DNA of 64,000 nucleotides from Oceanicaulis sp. HTCC2633 (lineage in GTDB: Bacteria; Pseudomonadota; Alphaproteobacteria; Caulobacterales; Maricaulaceae): the NCBI RefSeq assembly GCF_000152745.1, contig NZ_CH672428.1, positions 2,819,425-2,883,424 of the forward strand, given 5' to 3'. This document shows positions 6,476 to 55,363 of this stretch, in pieces. Numbering within the stretch: the first letter of the stretch is position 1; each line of letters starts with the position of its first letter. Both the position numbers and the translations under genes were made by a program. The notes under the pieces are model-generated. The model was not told the origin of the DNA. It was given only the letters and a program-made list of their open reading frames with translations, and made no database searches.

Positions 6476-6741
6476 CCTCGGTCCTCGGGCTTGACCCGGG
6501 GACCCATGGGCCTCCGGACCAAGTCCGAAGGCCGAGAGGTCGGGGGCAAGCTCCCAATTCCCCACACCGTCATCCTGACGCAAGTCAGGACCCAGAGAGA
6601 CCAGGGCGCTCCGGGTCCCGGATCAAGTCCGGGATGACGCGGTGGAATCACATGTCATTCACCGCTTCATGCGGTGACCCCATGCCGTGACCTGTCCTCA
6701 GCTCAACCGGAATGGATCCCCCGCACAAGGCGGGGGATGAC
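6476..6741. repeat. Three adjacent palindromic repeat units (types A, F, D)
   Basis: The gap after the kinase gene is filled by three imperfect inverted-repeat units of 60-90 bp. Type A is 6476-6539, with ends CCTCGGTCCTCGGGC and CCGAAGGCCGAGAGG. Type F is 6569-6638, running from GTCATCCTGAC to GTCCGGGATGAC. Type D is 6654-6741, running from GTCATTCACCG to CGGGGGATGAC. Each unit is two hairpins joined by a spacer, with outer ends reading GTCAT...ATGAC. Related units recur at 7134-7206, 7478-8304, 53260-53668 and 58330-58426. They look like REP/RPE-type elements or non-autonomous miniature elements; no transposase is nearby. Confidence 0.75.
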
Positions 6742-6764
6742 AGGGGGAGAGGGTGGGCGCAAGC

Positions 6765-7433
6765 TCACCCGCCATGCTCCGGCGGCAGGGGTTTGATGCC
6801 CAGGGCTTCGCGGTGGGCGTCGGTGAACTCTTCGCCCTCTTTCAGCCCGGCCCGCTGGCGCAGATGCGCGGCGAGGCGATCGAGCCGACGATCCATCTCG
6901 TCATAATAGCGGCTGGCGTCCTCCGCCGTCTTCGGCTGCGGCGCGCTCGCGCGCATGCGGTCATAGCGCTCGGCGAGGCGCAACGCCTGCTCGGCCTGTC
7001 GCAGGCGCCCCGCCCCGGTCAAGGCGAGCGCGCGCTGTTTGAGACTGCGCGCCATCTGCCCCCATTGTTCAGCGCTGATCTCGGGGGCGTCTTCGGTCGC
7101 GTCCTTCTCTTCACCCTCTTTCCCATACTGAAACCCCGGCCCTGAGCCGGGGCCTCCCTCCGCGTGTGGCGCCTCATTCTGATGGACGTCCCGGCTCAAG
7201 GCCGGGAATTCAGGTGAGGGAGAGGAGGAGGGCGCGCCACCCCGCCCCGACACGGCCCAGGCCGCCGCTTCCAGATCACAGACGCGAAAGCCATGCGCCT
7301 CGGCCCAGCGATAGATGGTGCTCACCGTCACGCCACAGGCGCGCGCGATCTCGGCGGTCTCCGCCCCCGCCTCCCGCATCGCCCGCGCCCGGGCGATCCT
7401 CGGATCATTGATGTCAGGTGTCCCAGCGCTCAT
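6765..7433 (-). CDS. Helix-turn-helix protein with a repeat-derived insert
   Basis: A 222-residue protein. Residues 1-55 hold a terminase-small-subunit or resolvase-type helix-turn-helix, with AETAEIARACGVTVSTIYRW as its core. The C-terminal half is charged and helical (SLKQRALALTGAGRLRQAEQ and RLDRLAAHLRQRAGLKEGEE). The middle, about residues 76-100, is translated from a palindromic repeat unit (7134-7206). It reads as low-complexity Gly/Pro-rich sequence and keeps the frame open. The first third of the gene is duplicated at 7971-8116. It is probably a DNA-binding protein; a phage-like origin is possible but no other phage genes are near. Confidence 0.65.
   Translation of the reverse strand: MSAGTPDINDPRIARARAMREAGAETAEIARACGVTVSTIYRWAEAHGFRVCDLEAAAWAVSGRGGAPSSSPSPEFPALSRDVHQNEAPHAEGGPGSGPGFQYGKEGEEKDATEDAPEISAEQWGQMARSLKQRALALTGAGRLRQAEQALRLAERYDRMRASAPQPKTAEDASRYYDEMDRRLDRLAAHLRQRAGLKEGEEFTDAHREALGIKPLPPEHGG
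7134..7206. repeat. Palindromic repeat unit inside a coding sequence
   Basis: Two hairpins, CCCCGGCCCTGAGCCGGGG at 7134-7152 and CCCGGCTCAAGGCCGGG at 7190-7206, have the layout of the intergenic repeat units. They match the CCCGGCCTTGAGCCGGG core of type B. They lie wholly inside the helix-turn-helix gene at 6765-7433 and contribute about 24 in-frame codons. This resembles the in-ORF palindromic elements described in Rickettsia. Confidence 0.7.
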
Positions 7434-7477
7434 GCCCTTGACGGTAAGGGGTGAGGGCGGGGTGGTGGATAGCGCTT

Positions 7478-7934
7478 CCCCTCTCCCCCTTGGACAAGGG
7501 GGAGAGGCCGGGTGAGGGGGTGCGCTTCAACCGCGCTGCGCCTCAGGCTTGCCCCGCCACTCACACCTCACCTGTCCTCTCCCCTCAGGAAGGGGAGAGG
7601 GACGCACGGCGTCGGCTCACTATCTCCCTCTTTCCCCGCGAAGGCGGGGACCCAGAGATCATCACGCGCTAGCGCATCCGGCTCTGGGCCCCCGCGTGCG
7701 CGGGGGAAGAGAATAAGTCTCTCCCCCTCGGTCCTCGGGCTTGACCCGGGGACCCAGACCAACCGAGCCGCCGCATGGGCCTCCGGATCAAGTCCGAAGG
7801 CCGAGAGGTTGGGTGTGCTCTTCCAATCTTTCCACCCGTCATCCCGGCCTTGAGCCGGGATCTACTGCAGGCGTCTCAGTGATTAGACCTGAGCGTTTCC
7901 TGCAGATCCCGGCGCGCTGCGCGTCCGGGATGAC
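7478..7934. repeat. Tandem mosaic of repeat units E, C, A and B
   Basis: Four different palindromic units follow one another. Type E is 7478-7602 (hairpins CCTCTCCCCCTTG/CAAGGGGGAGAGG and CCTCTCCCCT/AGGGGAGAGG). Type C is 7626-7711 (CCCCGCGAAGGCGGGG and CCCCCGCGTGCGCGGGGG). Type A is 7726-7808. Type B is 7838-7934 (GTCATCCCGGCCTTGAGC to CGTCCGGGATGAC). No coding sequence is credible here. The stretch links the helix-turn-helix gene to its partial duplicate. Confidence 0.75.
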
Positions 7935-7970
7935 ACAATGGCGGGGCAGGCGGTGCGCTGGCGGCTCAAT

Positions 7971-8116
7971 GTCACGCCGCAGGCGCGCGCGATCTCGGCG
8001 GTCTCCGCCCCCGCCTCCCGCATCGCCCGCGCCCGGACGATCCTCGGATCATTGATGTCAGGTGTCTCAGCGCTCATGCCCTTGACGGTAAGGGGTGAGG
8101 GCGGGGTGGGGGATAG
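7971..8116 (-). pseudogene. Truncated duplicate of the helix-turn-helix gene start
   Basis: The 146 bp at 7971-8116 match 7327-7472 with about four mismatches seen by eye (offset 644 bp). The copy covers the upstream region and the first 36 codons (MSAETPDINDPRIVRARAMR through IARACGVT). The frame then runs into repeat-derived sequence and ends at 7883. The copy lacks the second recognition helix and the entire C-terminal half, so it is a remnant. The break lies close to a type B repeat unit, which suggests repeat-mediated rearrangement. Confidence 0.7.
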
Positions 8117-8140
8117 GGCGGCGTTCTCCGCTTTAAGTCT

Positions 8141-8304
8141 CCCTCTTTCCCCGCGCAGGCGGGGACCCAGAGATCATCAAGCGCTGCGTAACCGGCTCTG
8201 GGCCCCCGCCTGCGCGGGGGAAGAGGAGAGGGAATTCAACCCCAGTCGTCATCCCGGCCTTGAGCCGGGATCTACTGCAGGCGTCTCTGCGATCAGAACG
8301 GGTT
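8141..8304. repeat. Repeat unit C and a half unit B
   Basis: A second type C unit (8141-8226, hairpins CCCCGCGCAGGCGGGG and CCCCCGCCTGCGCGGGGG) is followed by the left half only of a type B unit (8248-8304). That half starts GTCATCCCGGCCTTGAGC and stops after GGCGTCTCTGCGATCAGAAC. The truncation of unit B coincides with the left boundary of the AT-rich island that begins near 8305, so the island may have joined here. Confidence 0.65.
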
Positions 8305-8452
8305 GAGTTAGTTCTATCTGACCTAGAATTGACTTGGGGCTGAGAAAGGAGGCGCTGCTAGATCAAAACGATAAAAATTGATCAAGTACAGGTTGCGGGC
8401 GCGGCTTAACAAAGTGTAAAATAATCACCTTAGCTTTAAAAAAGGAAGGTTT

Positions 8453-8659
8453 ATGGCTCGCTATTACGTAAACAAAAACATCGACGACCACGGGAATCAC
8501 GAGGTTCATGTTCATAGTTGCGCTTGGCTCCCCCTAGAACATAACCGTATATATCTAGGAGATTTTTTAAGCTGCGGCCCTGCAAAGGCTGAAGCAAAAA
8601 AAATCTATTCTACGGCAGATGGTTGTGCGCATTGCTCCCCGAGCTGCCATACAGGCTAA
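8453..8659 (+). CDS. 68-aa Cys/His-rich accessory protein
   Basis: A small soluble protein with no signal peptide or membrane helix, starting at ATG 8453 behind AAAAAAGGAAGG. It has a regular set of possible metal ligands: HEVHVHSCAWLP near the start and GCAHCSPSCH near the end, a likely zinc-binding arrangement. Short proteins with this HxxxC, YLGDF and CxxC-x3-CH pattern are familiar as scattered accessory genes, but no function is known to me. It is AT-rich compared with the flanks and sits at the head of the island that holds the Rex-like pair. It is 122 bp upstream of that pair. Confidence 0.7.
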   Translation: MARYYVNKNIDDHGNHEVHVHSCAWLPLEHNRIYLGDFLSCGPAKAEAKKIYSTADGCAHCSPSCHTG

Positions 8660-8692
8660 TTCATGGGGCTAGATTGTTCTTGAGGGGAAGTG

Positions 8693-8721
8693 TTGACAGC
8701 GCCTCCGGAACAAAATAAGAA
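8693..8721 (+). promoter_or_regulatory. Possible promoter for the Rex-like pair
   Basis: A consensus -35 box TTGACA (8693-8698) is followed, with a 17-bp spacer, by TAAGAA (8716-8721), which is a weak -10 box. It sits about 60 bp upstream of the GTG start at 8782, in the gap after the small Cys/His gene. The -35 is exact but the -10 is poor, so this is tentative. Confidence 0.3.
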
Positions 8722-8781
8722 CTTTTGTGCGGACGGGAAATTTCTGCAATCGTGTGTACCTCTTAGATTCGAGGTACTGCA

Positions 8782-9723
8782 GTGCTTGATACACATGCCC
8801 GTTGGGCTCTCCATATGGAGTTGATCCTAAAGCCTATGCCTGTAGAGGCGCCGAACCCAAGAATTGAAGACTACTTGGGCGGTATTCTAAATCTCATTGA
8901 CAACAAACAAGCAGTTCATTTCTCTGACAAGAAGACAAAGTCAATGAGAGCTGTTGACTACCATGTGGATTATGAATTGGGCTTGCTTTTTATTCTTTTG
9001 CATTATGCGGATATTAATTTATCTGATCCGGCTTTTGAGCACTTAGAAAAGGGAGTGGTGAGAATAGAGGAAAAACGTGAGGGCGAAGGTATCGCAGTAT
9101 CAACGCATATGGCTATTGATTTAAAATCTCGCGATCCCAGCTTCGGTGCTTATAGGGTTCTTCTTGAAGATGTTACAGGAATTGGCCGCACAAAGCTTGA
9201 ACCGTTTTTAACTTACATGATGCGACTCCTGCCTCGAATGGAATTTTCCTTGGATGATGGGAAAGTGCGTAAGTTTCGATCGGTAGCGGAATTGCATGGC
9301 TTTCAATCGGTTACCCTCAAGGAGGATCTGTCGTCTGGGGTGTTATCAGGAATTGAGCTTGTGCAAGTTGGTGTTGCGGGCAGCGAGTACGACGAAGAGG
9401 GGCTTCTTAAAGAGGAGAGGAGGGCTATTAAGCTTGACGTTGAGAAAAAGTTGCCAACAGAAGGCGCAATCGAACTCATTAATCGCGTGACTGGGAAGGC
9501 GCGGAACAATGGGTTTTCGAATATGCGTGTCACATGGCGACGAGATGAAGGCAAGCAGAAGTCGCGGGCTTTCGGTACGCACCGAGAAGATGTCTCTGAC
9601 GTGCTGACCCTTGGCACGAGCCATATGCGATATGATGCCCTTCGTGAGCAATGCGAGCAAGAAATCAGAGCTGACGTTGTTGAGAACTTGAAGGAAGTAC
9701 TCTTGAGCCAGAGGAAGCAATGA
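8782..9723 (+). CDS. RexA-like soluble protein of a two-gene system
   Basis: A 313-residue soluble protein with no membrane helix. GTG 8782 is chosen because GAGGT lies 6 bp upstream; ATG 8815 is an alternative. I do not recognise a named domain. Motif order, length and partner recall lambda RexA (279 aa). There is an early IEDYLGGILNLI helix, a mid-protein LEDVTGIGRTKLEPFL segment that parallels RexA's FGPTTSDLTDFL, and a basic strand-rich region (KEERRAIKLDVEKKLP). An NMRVTWRRDEGKQKSRAFG hairpin parallels RexA's DISLRAKDEAGDIL, and a helical C-terminus follows. The stop overlaps the start of a four-helix membrane protein (ATGA at 9720). GC content is clearly below that of neighbours, indicating transfer. 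The RexA relation is inferred by eye and not aligned. Confidence 0.6.
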   Translation: MLDTHARWALHMELILKPMPVEAPNPRIEDYLGGILNLIDNKQAVHFSDKKTKSMRAVDYHVDYELGLLFILLHYADINLSDPAFEHLEKGVVRIEEKREGEGIAVSTHMAIDLKSRDPSFGAYRVLLEDVTGIGRTKLEPFLTYMMRLLPRMEFSLDDGKVRKFRSVAELHGFQSVTLKEDLSSGVLSGIELVQVGVAGSEYDEEGLLKEERRAIKLDVEKKLPTEGAIELINRVTGKARNNGFSNMRVTWRRDEGKQKSRAFGTHREDVSDVLTLGTSHMRYDALREQCEQEIRADVVENLKEVLLSQRKQ

Positions 9724-10220
9724 GGCTTTTTAAGCCAATAATATATCTGACTGTAGAGCACCCCGAGAAGCGTAAGTATGACTTCTGGCTTCCGGCTGCT
9801 TTTGCATGTGCTTTTACGGCTATTTATATATTTTTAGATGGCACCATTAAATTTATAGAGAGTGGGGGAATTGTTGATTCGATTAATCAACTTCTAGCCT
9901 TGCTAGTCGGATTTTTCATTGCGGCACTTGCCGCGGTGGCGACTTTCAATTCTCCGAGCATGGACGAGAAGACATTAGGAAAGCCGTTTCTGCTTAAAGA
10001 AAATTATAAAGGTGAGAATTATGTTGTGGAGCTTACTCGCCGCAGATTTTTGTCCCTTATGTTTGGATATCTTAGTGTTCTCACTATAGTTTTGTATGTG
10101 ATTGGCGTCGCGGCAAAGGTGTTTGCGCCATATTTTCAAGTCTTGGTGCAAGAAAATATAGCAATGCAATCTATTTTTGTTTTTATATATATATGTTTTT
10201 GGTTGGGAATCTATTTGTAA
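9720..10220 (+). CDS. RexB-like four-helix membrane protein, possibly frameshifted at its end
   Basis: A 166-residue membrane protein whose ATG overlaps the upstream stop, so translation is coupled. Helices lie around FWLPAAFACAFTAIYIFL, INQLLALLVGFFIAALAAVA, FLSLMFGYLSVLTIVLYVIG and a last one at the C-terminus. Lambda RexB (144 aa) also has four helices and a comparable AILIAALTF second helix. The frame stops abruptly inside the last helix just after an (AT)5 run (10185-10194). One AT less gives a 187-residue product ending in GNLFVNTLLGIFYMSYRIHK and SDPRGM (stop 10283-10285), a complete helix with a basic tail. The short form may be a mutant, a phase-off state or a sequencing artefact. 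Confidence 0.65.
   Translation: MRLFKPIIYLTVEHPEKRKYDFWLPAAFACAFTAIYIFLDGTIKFIESGGIVDSINQLLALLVGFFIAALAAVATFNSPSMDEKTLGKPFLLKENYKGENYVVELTRRRFLSLMFGYLSVLTIVLYVIGVAAKVFAPYFQVLVQENIAMQSIFVFIYICFWLGIYL
10185..10194. repeat. (AT)5 dinucleotide run in a coding sequence
   Basis: Five AT units, flanked by T4 on the left and G then T5 on the right, fall within the codons for the last membrane helix of the RexB-like gene. Loss of one unit changes the reading frame and replaces the stop at 10218 with one at 10283. Short dinucleotide runs of this kind can slip in replication. Confidence 0.6.
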
Positions 10221-10370
10221 ATACCCTATTGGGTATATTTTATATGTCTTATCGGATTCATAAGTCTGACCCTCGTGGGATGTAGTTCTACCTATATTCG
10301 ATAGCGTTTTGGAACGGGAGCGCTTGAATTCTCAATCTCTCTTTCTGAAGTAATGAAAATTCTTCTCCCC

Positions 10371-12560
10371 CTAGCCAGCCCCCTCCAGCTTCTTGATCTC
10401 ATCCCTTAAGCGCGCGGCTTCCTCAAACTCTAGATCCGCCGCCGCCTCACGCATCCGCTTCTCCAGATCGGCGATCGCAGCCTTGAGATTGTTGGGTTCG
10501 AAGCGGGCCTGATCCTCGGCGACGGCGCGGTCGCGCTTCTTGTCGCGCCTCGAACCGCGGCCCTTGGCGGTTTCTTCCATCACGCCTTGCAGGATATCGC
10601 TGACGCCGCGGGTGACGGTGCGCGGGGTGATGCCGTGCTCCTGGTTATGGGCGATCTGTTTCTCGCGGCGGCGCTCGGTCTCCTCCATCGCCCGCTCCAT
10701 GGAGCCGGTGATGCGGTCGGCGTAAAGGATCACCCTGGCGTCGGCGTTCCGCGCGGCGCGGCCAATGGTCTGCACCAGCGAGGTTTCAGAGCGCAGGAAG
10801 CCTTCCTTGTCTGCATCGAGAATGCCCACAAGGCCGCATTCGGGGATGTCGAGGCCCTCGCGGAGCAGGTTGATGCCGACGAGGACGTCGTATTCGCCGA
10901 GGCGCAGATCGCGGATCAGCTCGATCCGCTCCACCGTGTCGATATCCGAGTGCATGTAGCGGACCTTCAGGCCCTGCTCGTGCATGTATTCGGTCAGATC
11001 CTCGGCCATTTTCTTGGTGAGGGTGGTGATGAGGGTGCGATAGCCCTTCTCGGCGGTCTTGCGCGCTTCCTCGATGATGTCATCGACCTGGGATGAGGTT
11101 TCGGTCTGCACCGGGCGCACCTCGACGGGCGGGTCGATCAGGCCGGTGGGGCGAATGACTTGCTCAGTGAACACGCCGCCGGTCTGGTTCAGCTCCCACT
11201 TTCCGGGCGTGGCGGAGACGTGGAGCGTTTGCGGGCGCATGGCCTCCCATTCCTCAAATTTGAGGGGGCGGTTATCCATGCAGGAGGGCAGGCGGAAGCC
11301 GTGCTCGGCCAGGGTGCGCTTGCGGTTGAAGTCGCCTTTGTACATCGCGCCCAGCTGGGGCACGGTGACATGGCTTTCGTCGATGAAGACCAGCGCATTG
11401 TCGGGCAGGTATTCAAACATGGTGGGGGGCGGCTCGCCGGGCTTGCGGCCGGTGAGATAGCGCGAATAGTTCTCGATCCCCATGCAGGAGCCTGTGGCCT
11501 CGAGCATTTCAAGGTCGAACTCGGTGCGCTGTTGCAGGCGCTGCGCCTCCAGCAGCTTGCCGTTGGCCTCCATCCAGGTCAGGCGCTCGGCCAGCTCTTT
11601 CTTGATGCCGACAATGGCCTGATTGAGCGTCGGGCGCGGGGTGACATAGTGGGAGTTGGCGTAGACGCGGACTTTCTCGAGATCGCCAATGGGGGCGCCG
11701 GTGAGGACCTCGAACTCCTGAATGCGCTCGATCTCGTCGCCAAAAAAGCTGATCCGCCAGGCGCGGGCGTCATAGTGGGCCGGGAAGATTTCCAGCACAT
11801 CGCCGCGCAGGCGGAACGTGCCGCGCTGGAAGGCGGCGTCATTGCGGGTGTATTGCAGCGACACGAGGTCGCGCATGACCTCGCGCGGATCCTTTTCCGC
11901 CCCCACCTCCAGATCGAATACCATGGCGGTGTAGGTCTCGACCGAGCCGATGCCGTAAATGCAGCTCACCGAGGCGACGATGATGACGTCGTCGCGCTCC
12001 AGGATGGCGCGGGTGGCGGCGTGGCGCATCCGGTCGATGGCCTCGTTGATGGTGGATTCTTTTTCTATGTAGGTGTCGGTGCGCGGCACATAGGCTTCGG
12101 GCTGGTAGTAGTCGTAGTAGGAGACGAAATACTCCACCGCATTATGGGGAAAGAAGTCCTTGAATTCGCCGTACAACTGCGCCGCCAGCGTCTTGTTCGG
12201 CGCCAGGATCAGAGCCGGACGCTGAACCTTTTCAATGACTTTCGCCATGGTGAAGGTCTTGCCCGACCCGGTGACGCCAAGGAGAACCTGATCTCTCTCC
12301 TGCTGGGAAATCCCCTCCACCAGCTCGGCGATCGCATGGGGCTGGTCGCCGGCGGGTTCGTAGTCGGACACCATGCGGAATTTCTGACCGCCTTCGGATT
12401 TGTCCGGGCGGTCGGGGCGGTGCGGGGTCCAGTTGGCGGGCAGGCTCAGCGGATCCCTGATGGAGCCCGAAACGGGCTTGTCCATCACGAAATCGGCCTG
12501 GGCCATGTCCTCGACGCCTTGGGGGGTGAGGGCGCTGTCGTCTCGGGTCAGTTTGGGCAT
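10371..12560 (-). CDS. uvrB: UvrABC nucleotide excision repair subunit B
   Basis: The 729-residue damage-verification helicase of nucleotide excision repair. Visible signatures are [13 protein letters not shown], the Walker A motif GVTGSGKT, the beta-hairpin around [20 protein letters not shown] and the DEAD-like FIDESH. Helicase motifs [10 protein letters not shown] and QTIGRAARN follow, and a C-terminal UVR motif ([20 protein letters not shown]) binds UvrC. An N-terminal extension of about 60 residues precedes the conserved core; ATG 12560 is taken, but later Met codons (19, 26) are possible. It is a cytoplasmic housekeeping gene and marks the right border of the AT-rich island. Confidence 0.97.
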
Positions 12561-53259: not shown

Positions 53260-53668
53260 GTCATTCACCGGTATATCCGGTGAATCCATGCCGTGACCTT
53301 TGATCCAACCAACCGGCATGGATCCCCCGCATGAAGCGGGGGATGACAGGATTGAGCCTTTAGAGATCGTCATCCTGACGAAGGCCGGGACCCGGAGACC
53401 ATCCAGCGTTGCGCATCCGGCGCTGGACCCCGGTCTTCACCGGGGAAGAGAATAATACCTCGGTCCTCGGACTTGATCCGGGGACCCATACCTAGCCGAG
53501 CCGCCGCATGGGCCTCCGGGTCAAGCCCGAAGGCCGAGAGGCTGGGGGCACGCTTTCCAACAGTCCCACCGGTCATCCCGGCCTTGAGCCGGGATCTGCT
53601 GAAGGCGTCTCTGTGATCAGAACAGAGTGGTTTCGGTAGATCCCGGATCGCTTCGCGTCCGGGATGGC
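53260..53668. repeat. Second mosaic of palindromic units (D, F/C, A, B)
   Basis: Four units repeat the types seen at 6.5-8.3 kb. Type D is 53260-53347 (GTCATTCACCGG to CGGGGGATGAC), type F/C is 53369-53450 (GTCATCCTGACGAAGG), type A is 53458-53541 (CCTCGGTCCTCGGAC to CCGAAGGCCGAGAGG) and type B is 53572-53668 (GTCATCCCGGCCTTGAGC to GCGTCCGGGATGGC). They fill most of the 1-kb gap between the 98-aa gene and the 253-aa gene. The remaining 53053-53259 and 53669-53943 hold nothing coding; the latter is AT-richer. Confidence 0.75.
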
Positions 53669-53943
53669 GAAGGAGCGGAAATAAGTGATTATAAGTCCCG
53701 CCGTCAGGCCCTTATTATTTTAATCACAATATTTCAGTTGCTTGGGCTGAGGCGTGGCGCGTGAGTGACGCCGCGAGTGCGGCTTGTGTAACGCGAGAAT
53801 TTGCAGTCAGGTGTCAGCTGTACTTGCTTTTCCTTAACGCGATGGCGACTGTCGAAATTCCGGCCCCATCTTGTCTATAATTGAGATGTGGTCGTCGCGA
53901 TTCATATCTATCCGACCGATAAGTAGAGGGAGCAATCGCGTTC

Positions 53944-54705
53944 ATGAGTGACGGGCACGAACAGGGTCACTTGTCCTCTCGTTGGACAGGAATAGTAGGA
54001 AGCGCTGACCGTATTTACTTTATCGGCTTGATAGTTGGCGCAGTCTCAATTGTCGGGTGGTTTGTAGCGTCCGTTGTGGCGCCGCAGGAATTCGTCCCGA
54101 ACGTAATTACCGAGTTCTTCGGGATCGCCCTTGAAGTTTCTCTTATCGTGACGCTGTTGGATTGGTTGTCTGCACGCAGAGAGAGGAAAAAGTGGGAGAA
54201 GGCAACGCATTTGGTGACTGATGATATCGTTCACCATTTGCATTGGACGCTAAACGTTGTTGAAGAATTTGAAGTCGCGTTACGTGCTCACTCAGGCAAG
54301 TCAGATGGTTCGCTGCCTTATAACTGGTGGGACTTGGGAAACTCGGCTGATTGGACAAAAAAAGAAGGCCGCTCCATCGCGACACAGCATCTTGGAGCCT
54401 TGGCGATAGCGCCGGAATATTCTTTCCTGCTGGCGCAAACAACCGAGTTATGCGGGGCTATTGAGTCTGCTTGCGACCAAGTTGTAGGGTCAAATTGCAC
54501 TCCGTTCGATTTAGAGTTTCAGTTCGAGAATATTTGTGCGGTTAGTTTGCGCCTCAGAGATATTTGCAAGGCAAGCGTTCCCTATGCTGAATTTGATAAT
54601 ACGTGGTCTAATCATTTGATGAAGCGCGCCGAAGCGATGCGTGAGCGCTGGGATGTGCTTCTTGAAGATTTTCACGAAGAATATTCCGCTCGCGAGGTGC
54701 GCTAG
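53944..54705 (+). CDS. Unassigned two-helix membrane protein with cytoplasmic domain
   Basis: A 253-residue protein. Two helices near the N-terminus (IYFIGLIVGAVSIVGWFVAS and FFGIALEVSLIVTLLDWL) are followed by about 170 cytoplasmic, mostly helical residues (LVTDDIVHHLHWTLNVVEEF, FENICAVSLRLRDICKASVP). No family recognised. GC content is lower than that of neighbours, and the gene lies between a repeat mosaic and panD, so it is probably an acquired accessory gene. A weak purine-rich site (AGAGGGAGCAATCGCGTTC) precedes ATG 53944. Confidence 0.65.
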   Translation: MSDGHEQGHLSSRWTGIVGSADRIYFIGLIVGAVSIVGWFVASVVAPQEFVPNVITEFFGIALEVSLIVTLLDWLSARRERKKWEKATHLVTDDIVHHLHWTLNVVEEFEVALRAHSGKSDGSLPYNWWDLGNSADWTKKEGRSIATQHLGALAIAPEYSFLLAQTTELCGAIESACDQVVGSNCTPFDLEFQFENICAVSLRLRDICKASVPYAEFDNTWSNHLMKRAEAMRERWDVLLEDFHEEYSAREVR

Positions 54706-54886
54706 GACGAATAGAGACAGCGTCCGAAAACAAACATTTCTGGGAGGCTCATTGAGCAATTTGCCAGAGGCTATCGAAGGCATGAATTTCAACCTCAATA
54801 TGCCTCCTGAAATGTCCGCTTCCGGGATAGAGCAACCAAGGCCCCCCAAAGCCACCCCCTACCCAAACACCCCCTTAATCCCCACA

Positions 54887-54900
54887 TGACAAATATGTCA
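54887..54900. promoter_or_regulatory. Short dyad upstream of panD
   Basis: TGACAAATATGTCA has perfect 5-bp arms around AATA and lies 77 bp before the panD start. It could be a regulator site within the panD promoter region. No regulator is assigned. Confidence 0.3.
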
Positions 54901-54976
54901 GTGCGAAACGGGTGTTTTTTCCGGCGCGATGGAGTATATCGCACTGCAGCACACTCATGTTCATGACGAGGGCGGA

Positions 54977-55363
54977 ATGCAACTCACCATGATGAAGACC
55001 AAGCTTCACCGCGCGGCGGTGACGCAGGCGGACCTTCACTATGAAGGCTCCATCTCCATCGACCAGGACCTGCTGGATGCGGCGGGCATACTGGTCAATG
55101 AGCAGGTGGATGTCCTGAACATCAACAATGGCCAGCGCTTCACGACCTACGCCATCTCGGCCCCGCGCGGCTCGAAGATGTTCGGGATCAATGGCGCCGC
55201 AGCGCGCCTGGCGCAGCCGGGCGACCGCATCATCGTGGTGGGCTATGCGGGCATGGCGGCGGAAGAAGCGCGCCAGTTCGTCCCCACGGTCGTGCTGCTC
55301 GATGAGAACAATGACGTGGTCAGCGTCGAGGAAGGCTCGGGCCGCAAGCTGGATGCAGCTTAG
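54977..55363 (+). CDS. panD: Aspartate 1-decarboxylase proenzyme
   Basis: A 128-residue pyruvoyl enzyme that makes beta-alanine for pantothenate and CoA. Self-cleavage occurs at Gly-Ser in [13 protein letters not shown], which creates the pyruvoyl group; the start [16 protein letters not shown] matches the family. [19 protein letters not shown] and [18 protein letters not shown] are also conserved. ATG 54977 has a purine-rich site (GAGGGCGGA) just upstream. It is an isolated gene, followed by a repeat and a strong terminator. Confidence 0.95.

What the first reader, a model, noticed from the sequence alone, without database searches (positions are those of the whole stretch)
8782..10220. Candidate Rex-like phage-exclusion pair in an AT-rich island
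A translationally coupled pair (ATGA overlap) encodes a soluble 313-aa protein and a four-helix membrane protein. It sits in an island that is clearly AT-richer than the housekeeping genes on both sides. Size, order and topology match lambda RexA (279 aa) and RexB (144 aa, four helices), an abortive system in which RexA senses phage complexes and RexB depolarises the membrane. By eye, segments occur in the same order as in RexA: an early LGGILNLI helix, LEDVTGIGRTKLEPFL versus FGPTTSDLTDFL, a basic strand-rich region and a late hairpin. The second helix FFIAALAAVA resembles RexB AILIAALTF. Unlike lambda, no prophage surrounds it, so it could be a chromosomal, stand-alone defence system.
Basis: partly seen in the sequence, partly recalled or inferred. 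Interest (0 to 1): 0.8.

Follow-up and report, generated by a model that had tools for sequence, protein, structure and literature searches.

The report
Rex-type phage-defence pair with frameshifted effector
Two neighbouring bacterial genes belong to a family shown in another bacterium to stop virus infection by damaging the cell's own membrane, but in this genome the membrane gene appears to have lost the end of its reading frame.

Summary
The pair is real: a 313-aa protein (A, 8782-9723) and a 166-aa four-helix membrane protein (B, 9720-10220), overlapping by ATGA, in an island of 44% G+C against 63%. They match PADLOC's candidate family PDC-M53A/B (7e-26, 1.7e-36). A lies upstream of B in 79 of 80 viral-contig loci and 75 of 80 genome loci. 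One relative, L088, is the published Pseudomonas putida RexAB-type system (same gene order, 6 of 7 published residues, protein mass), where both genes are needed for defence, RexA binds DNA and RexB damages the membrane. A Rex-type abortive-infection module is therefore the best reading. Homology to lambda RexA/RexB itself was not detected here. Two things were missed. First, B is frameshifted near its 3' end: the conserved tail lies in another frame, and published loss-of-toxicity changes fall in that end of RexB; the copy is probably disarmed unless the assembly is wrong. Second, the pair sits directly behind uvrB, where 8 of 12 related genomes carry other defence genes (six strong cases; Kiwa and SIR2 weaker). 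It is a new member of a known kind in a chromosomal defence hot spot.

The parts
8782..9723 (+). Gene A, 313 aa, PDC-M53A / RexApp family: predicted soluble DNA-binding sensor
   Evidence: PADLOC PDLC04696 E 7.3e-26; profile of 18 L088-like proteins hits it at 6.1e-20 with Z 100000; AlphaFold pLDDT 93.3
9720..10220 (+). Gene B, 166 aa as encoded, PDC-M53B / RexBpp family: four-helix membrane effector, C-terminally truncated by a frameshift
   Evidence: PADLOC PDLC04699 E 1.7e-36; profile of 125 relatives E 2.1e-47 with Z 100000; model pLDDT 89.2 with four long helices
10160..10270 (+). Stretch in another frame (third frame counted from 9720) that encodes the conserved B tail; overlaps the end of B and runs beyond its stop
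   Evidence: hmmsearch with a profile made without the window: profile positions 153-189 of 190, i-Evalue 9.6e-11
8298..10370 (.). AT-rich variable island between a repeat-rich left flank and the uvrB stop codon
   Evidence: G+C 43.9%; similarity to the uvrB side of sister genomes stops at window 10363-10393 in 12 of 12 relatives read, and in G007 resumes left of about 8297
10371..12560 (-). uvrB, conserved right-hand border of the hot spot
   Evidence: matched over its length at 81-97% identity in 12 of the 14 other genus genomes and by a fragment in the other two; the gene 5' of it is conserved in 9 of 9 genomes read
8453..8659 (+). 68-aa Cys/His-rich ORF at the left end of the island, role unknown; probably not part of the module
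   Evidence: PHROG 4298 E 6e-20, a phage protein family of unknown function; no relative among the ORFs of the other loci searched

Best explanation
The pair is a Rex-type abortive-infection module of the PDC-M53 / RexABpp family, carried in a defence-gene hot spot behind uvrB. A is a DNA-binding sensor (probably a dimeric clamp) that recognises phage DNA or replication complexes. It switches on B, a four-helix inner-membrane protein that assembles into a pore-like oligomer, breaches the membrane and stops growth before the phage matures. Shown for the P. putida relative: both genes are needed for defence, RexA binds DNA, and RexB is toxic when RexA is overproduced. Modelled only (by the paper): clamp and pore. 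Inferred for the window: everything functional, by homology. In this genome the effector gene is frameshifted just before its conserved C-terminal tail, so the copy is probably disarmed while A is intact. The confidence given is for family and mode of action; for 'disarmed' it is about 0.6.
For: Family match of both genes. L088 carries the published RexABpp: gene order CI - HIRAN - small gene - A - B - HicB/HicA as described for PP_3896-3897-3898-5643-5644-hicAB2 (PMC12894663); 6 of 7 published RexB residues in place, the best of 92 homologues, the next two having 5; A plus His6 37.47 kDa against a published 37.5. L088 is matched by the same PADLOC families. A upstream of B in 79 of 80 viral loci and 75 of 80 genome loci. 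Phage cargo positions: between antiterminator and holin genes in SfII and an E. coli prophage, before the holin genes in Salmonella phage F1055, next to an integrase in one of two Vibrio phages. Different defence genes at the same chromosomal site in 8 of 12 relatives. Frameshift; published inactivating changes G153stop and Y181H lie in the C-terminal end of RexB.
Against: No experiment on this copy. blastp finds no match of window A to L088 A, and 33% identity over 129 residues for B. Window A is slightly acidic (pI 6.0) where L088 A is basic (pI 9.2), so DNA binding is not obvious from charge. Two-hybrid tests in the paper did not show A-B contact, and no depolarisation was seen. Foldseek and profile comparison did not recover RexA here. 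PADLOC gives weak matches to neighbouring genes too (three of six window control proteins, uvrB up to 47 bits), so the Kiwa (40-42 bits) and SIR2 (51 bits) cases at the hot spot rest on Pfam cut-offs. Two family alignments place the last residues of window B against the tail motif with an 8-residue gap, which would be a deletion rather than a frameshift. The frame break may also be an assembly error.
Confidence: 0.85

Rival explanations
1. The system is intact: the frame break in B is an assembly error, or B works without its tail.
For: No reads could be checked. The model of the 166-aa B still has four long helices with pLDDT 89.2. A is intact and B is well conserved up to its end.
Against: The tail is conserved: a crude tail motif is present in 85 of 92 B sequences (the window copy is one of the 92 and one of the seven without it) and in 73 of 80 genome loci; Y181H, in the tail, removed RexBpp toxicity.
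Confidence: 0.35
2. Roles are reversed as in mycobacteriophage Butters: the soluble protein is the antiphage effector and the membrane protein holds it in check.
For: Such a Rex-like system is described for Butters gp30/gp31 (PMC12894663, discussion). It would leave A active when B is broken.
Against: In the nearest tested homologue RexBpp is the toxic part and RexApp without RexBpp is harmless.
Confidence: 0.08
3. A lysogeny-switch or other phage-regulation module left behind by a prophage, not a defence gene pair.
For: Lambda RexA influences the lytic switch (PMC11077077 abstract). Many relatives lie in phages. The 68-aa ORF beside the pair matches a phage protein family (PHROG 4298).
Against: I recognised no other phage gene by eye among the ORFs of 5-15 kb, though these were not scanned against phage profiles; the site carries unrelated defence genes in relatives; RexABpp deletion did not change repressor expression.
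Confidence: 0.06
4. Kiwa-like system (KwaA membrane protein with KwaB of similar size), as found at this very site in G007.
For: Similar sizes and topology; a KwaA-KwaB pair occupies the homologous site in G007.
Against: Window proteins match no Kiwa model at E up to 10 in PADLOC or Pfam, and the order is the reverse of that in G007.
Confidence: 0.01

Closest known systems
RexABpp, P. putida prophage P1 (PP_5643/PP_5644; PMC12894663, 2026)
   Same: Same two protein families, order A-B, four-helix B with the conserved GFYIAALAA-like and TRRRF blocks; L088 is this locus
   Different: Window pair is far diverged (B 33% identical, A not found by blastp), lies outside any prophage that I could recognise, has no cI/HicAB neighbours, and its B is frameshifted
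PDC-M53A/PDC-M53B (PADLOC-DB phage defence candidate)
   Same: Both genes match; this report links the candidate to RexABpp
   Different: PADLOC's entry carries no description; the window B is shorter than the 188-position model
Phage lambda RexA/RexB (PF15969/PF15968)
   Same: Order, soluble plus four-helix membrane protein, similar sizes; published fold similarity of RexApp to RexA (8TWQ, DALI Z 8.8, as given in PMC12894663)
   Different: No sequence-profile match here; lambda RexB is 144 aa; the lambda pair sits behind cI
Pairs of Salmonella phage F1055, Shigella phage SfII, E. coli E7476 prophage and two Vibrio phages
   Same: Same A-B pair
   Different: Carried by phages; B 185-194 aa

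Membership tests
PDC-M53 (PADLOC) | A matches PDC-M53A profiles | tested here: met
   five models, best E 7.3e-26
PDC-M53 (PADLOC) | B matches the PDC-M53B profile | tested here: met
   E 1.7e-36, positions 5-165 of 188
PDC-M53 (PADLOC) | A upstream of B on the same strand | tested here: met
   ATGA overlap; 79 of 80 and 75 of 80 relatives alike
PDC-M53 (PADLOC) | B complete, with the conserved C-terminal tail in frame | tested here: not met
   tail is in another frame; alternative alignment with an 8-residue gap
RexABpp-type system | Homologous to PP_5643/PP_5644 | tested here: met
   profiles of L088-like sequences find window A at 6.1e-20 and B at 2.1e-47; L088 identified
RexABpp-type system | A binds DNA; both genes needed for defence; B toxic when A is overproduced | not testable with these tools
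   published for PP_5643/5644 only (PMC12894663)
Lambda RexA / RexB | Sequence or profile match to PF15969 / PF15968 or PADLOC RexA / RexB | tested here: not met
   no match for the window at E up to 10, while lambda RexA and RexB match their own models; hhalign A against 4 RexA at chance level, B against 2 RexB E 0.076 over 22 columns, no shuffle control
Lambda RexA / RexB | RexA two-domain fold | tested here: inconclusive
   order of strands and helices in the model suggests two parts and a C-terminal helix (my inference); 8TWQ not among the 50 rows shown of 813 Foldseek matches; second aligner unavailable
Lambda RexA / RexB | Soluble protein followed by a four-helix membrane protein | tested here: met
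Lambda RexA / RexB | Position directly behind a cI repressor | tested here: not met
   the ORF directly upstream on the same strand is the 68-aa one, with no Pfam match; uvrB lies on the other side
Kiwa | KwaA / KwaB profile match | tested here: not met
   none at E up to 10

The most novel reading that the evidence does not exclude
The frame break at the end of B is not decay but a safety catch. An autotoxic Rex-type membrane effector is kept in the genome with its activating tail out of frame, so that only rare frameshifting or phase-variable cells make the active form, while intact A persists as a DNA-binding protein.
Probability: 0.05. Interest if true: 0.7.

Novelty: new member of a known kind. 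Interest (0 to 1): 0.45.

Why it matters
It ties a large unnamed candidate family (PDC-M53) to the one member that I found with experiments, RexABpp. That suggests that Rex-type defence is not a lambda curiosity: it is spread over many bacterial genomes, tailed phages and small Vibrio phages. It also points to a compact chromosomal slot behind uvrB where related species hold different defence systems, and to the C-terminal tail of the membrane effector as the part to test for activation.

Tried and rejected
Direct homology of A to lambda RexA: hhalign of 47 A sequences against 2 RexA and 4 RexA was at chance level. Four of five local alignments fell near the diagonal, but no control was made for that. 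The RexA profile was thin (Neff 1.8), so this is a weak negative. B against RexB: E 0.076 over 22 columns.

Folds: Foldseek against PDB gave nothing at E up to 0.001 for A or B. Against viral models, four unnamed siphovirus or caudovirus proteins matched A. Sequence search of the PDB with the A profile gave one chance row, E 0.7.

Searches that found no relative: genome contigs with window A alone, viral contigs with window B alone, viral contigs with a Salmonella phage RexA. PF15969 in 398 genomes of the phylum gave no match, nor in controls, so it is uninformative. Near-complete copies of the phage pair are rare in E. coli: 1 of 5426 genomes.

Kiwa as identity of the pair: rejected. RNA element at 6500-10600: none over gathering scores. 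Promoter scan: 1 site against 4.0 expected; terminators 3 against 2.2. tRNA as insertion site: none in the window. The 68-aa ORF as a third part: not found near other pairs. Literature for 'PDC-M53': 0 papers. For uvrB with defense island, hotspot and anti-phage together: 0 papers. Both searches cover only the held open-access library; two searches were seen as listings only.

Full report
WHAT IS THERE. Window 8782-9723 encodes a 313-aa protein (A) from a GTG start, and 9720-10220 a 166-aa protein (B); stop and start overlap as ATGA. The two lie in an island of 43.9% G+C (8298-10370) in a window of 63%. The right border is the stop codon of uvrB (10371-12560, minus strand). The left flank is a repeat-rich stretch with a partial duplication.

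FAMILY. Pfam and NCBIfam have no family for A, and for B only chance rows. PADLOC has: A matches five PDC-M53A models (best 7.3e-26) and B the single PDC-M53B model (1.7e-36). PHROGs of unknown function match both. The name PDC-M53 occurs in 0 papers of the held library. PDC-M53B was found in 1 of 15 genomes of the genus (the window's own) and in 2 of 61 relatives in all, in 2 of 398 genomes of a phylum sample, the window's own included, and in 0 of 14 control genomes; it is sporadic, as expected for mobile defence cargo. A viral-contig scan with a B alignment found 145 relatives, 80 kept. In 79 of the 80 an A-family ORF lies upstream of B (in two pieces in L028 and L095, cut by the contig start in a few); in the 80th (L085) B starts at the contig edge. 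A scan of genomes found 89 relatives, 80 kept, mostly Pseudomonadota by my reading of the titles. In 75 of 80 an A-family ORF ends within 400 bases upstream, a few of these fragments (L134, L141, L207); of the five others one (L148) starts at the contig edge and four (L156, L157, L164, L199) show no A. Annotated relatives include Salmonella phage F1055, Shigella phage SfII, an E. coli prophage, two Vibrio phages, and plasmids of Sulfitobacter (beside a type ISP restriction enzyme) and Acinetobacter.

THE TESTED RELATIVE. A 2026 paper (PMC12894663; I saw the outline, abstract, passages, and sections 6, 7, 8, 10, 11 and 12) describes a RexAB-type defence system, PP_5643/PP_5644, in P. putida prophage P1. 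Viral contig L088 is that locus. Gene order is CI-type repressor, HIRAN gene, small gene, A, B, then HicB and HicA on the other strand, as the paper gives for PP_3896, 3897, 3898, 5643, 5644 and hicAB2. Six of the seven RexB residues named in the paper stand at those positions (the seventh, an insertion at T103, is T102 here), more than in any other of 92 homologues, the next two having five. The calculated mass of A with His6 is 37.47 kDa against 37.5 in the paper. That the contig number means P. putida KT2440 is my recollection only. L088 A and B match PDC-M53 models with 519.5 and 240.5 bits. The window proteins are homologues of these: profiles made from L088-like sequences (18 for A, 125 for B) find window A at 6.1e-20 and window B at 2.1e-47 (Z 100000).

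MECHANISM. In the paper both genes are needed for protection, RexApp binds DNA non-specifically, overproduction of RexApp stops growth only if RexBpp is present, and RexBpp then lets dyes and some enzyme through the membrane in part of the cells, without measurable depolarisation. Two-hybrid tests did not show contact of the two proteins. Clamp and pore are the authors' AlphaFold models. By homology, A is the sensor and B the membrane effector. For the window copy none of these steps is shown. The AlphaFold models made here are confident (A pLDDT 93.3; B 89.2 with four long helices). Window A is slightly acidic (pI 6.0) while L088 A is basic (9.2), a mild point against DNA binding.

THE BROKEN END. 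A B profile made without the window matches the window frame up to residue 166, and its positions 153-189 of 190 match, without gaps, another frame at 10160-10270 (i-E 9.6e-11). Most relatives end with a conserved block after the fourth helix; the window frame stops before it. Against this, two multiple alignments put the last residues of window B opposite that block with an 8-residue gap; I prefer the frameshift because it recovers the whole block without gaps. In the paper, G153stop and Y181H were among the rexB changes that relieved growth arrest. The window copy should therefore be disarmed, unless the assembly has an error here. Under RexApp overproduction 7 of 38 escape mutants had rexB changes and 30 had lost the prophage, so decay of an autotoxic effector is plausible.

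THE SITE. In 12 related genomes the DNA behind uvrB was read. Similarity stops at the uvrB end (window 10363-10393) in all 12 and resumes to the left of the island only in G007, apart from short stretches in G009 and G010. On the 5' side of uvrB the next gene is conserved in 9 of 9 genomes read and the one after it in 8 of 9. I scanned 20 proteins chosen by eye from 11 of the 12 sites against PADLOC, ten of them also against Pfam. Eight of 12 sites carry genes of named defence families. Six are strong: a type II-A retron with RT and NDT (G006), C5-methylase with UvrD-PDDEXK (G010), AAA ATPase of HEC-01 type (G008), GmrSD with AAA (G014), DpnI about 2 kb away (G009), and methylase with a DpdB-like protein (G001). 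Two are weaker: Kiwa KwaA-KwaB (42 and 40 bits, G007) and SIR2 with STAND (51 bits, G012); KwaB and SIR2 exceed Pfam's cut-offs. At three sites (G011, G004, G013) the proteins scanned matched no PADLOC model, and at one (G002) there was no AT-rich island and nothing was scanned. As a control, six window proteins outside the pair gave weak PADLOC matches in three cases, up to 47 bits for uvrB. The pair's nearest relative, in Phenylobacterium (A 45%), also lies in a chromosomal patch of lower G+C with no phage genes that I recognised by eye. In the window itself the 68-aa ORF beside the pair matches a phage protein family; other neighbours were not scanned against phage profiles.

RELATION TO LAMBDA. 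By sequence the window proteins match no RexA or RexB model, and profile comparisons are at chance for A and not significant for B. Foldseek did not list RexA among 50 rows of 813, although 8TWQ is in the PDB sequence set. The published link rests on HHpred and DALI results for PP_5643, which I could not repeat. The RexA structure paper (PMC11077077; abstract, passages and section 19 seen) describes a two-domain dimer related to RdgC. So 'works like Rex' is well supported; 'is a lambda RexAB' is not.

VERDICT. A new, diverged and probably disarmed member of a known kind, in a chromosomal defence hot spot. The link between PDC-M53 and RexABpp and the uvrB hot spot are the most useful outcomes.

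Noticed in passing
window 10371, and L120-L127, L210-L213: The 3' end of uvrB is a defence-gene hot spot in this genus: 8 of 12 relatives carry different defence genes there, while the 5' neighbour of uvrB is conserved in 9 of 9 read.
   Followed up: partly
window 7320-7475 and 7964-8119: A 156-bp direct repeat (96%) duplicates the start of the 222-aa HTH-type gene (6765-7433, minus) at the left edge of the island; both copies match one stretch in G007.
   Followed up: partly
window 7832-7887 and 8242-8297 (and 6616-6639): Short palindromic intergenic repeats around CGTCATCCCGGC...GCCGGGAT, several copies near the island.
   Followed up: no
window 8453-8659: 68-aa Cys/His-rich ORF matching PHROG 4298, not found beside other pairs.
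   Followed up: partly
L010 10998-12543 and L011 10965-12531: Two Vibrio phages of under 15 kb (Vinavirales by their records; tailless, as I recall) carry the complete pair near one end of the genome, in L010 next to an integrase.
   Followed up: partly
L006 7801-8588: In a Microvirga plasmid only B and a 63-aa remnant of A remain; an ORF that looks like a transposase lies just upstream.
   Followed up: partly
L211 1147-2466: Behind uvrB in G004 lies a gene that looks like hipA by eye, with a small HTH gene before it; PADLOC has no match.
   Followed up: no
window 53500-55000: A second dip in G+C (about 50%) in the window, not examined.
   Followed up: no
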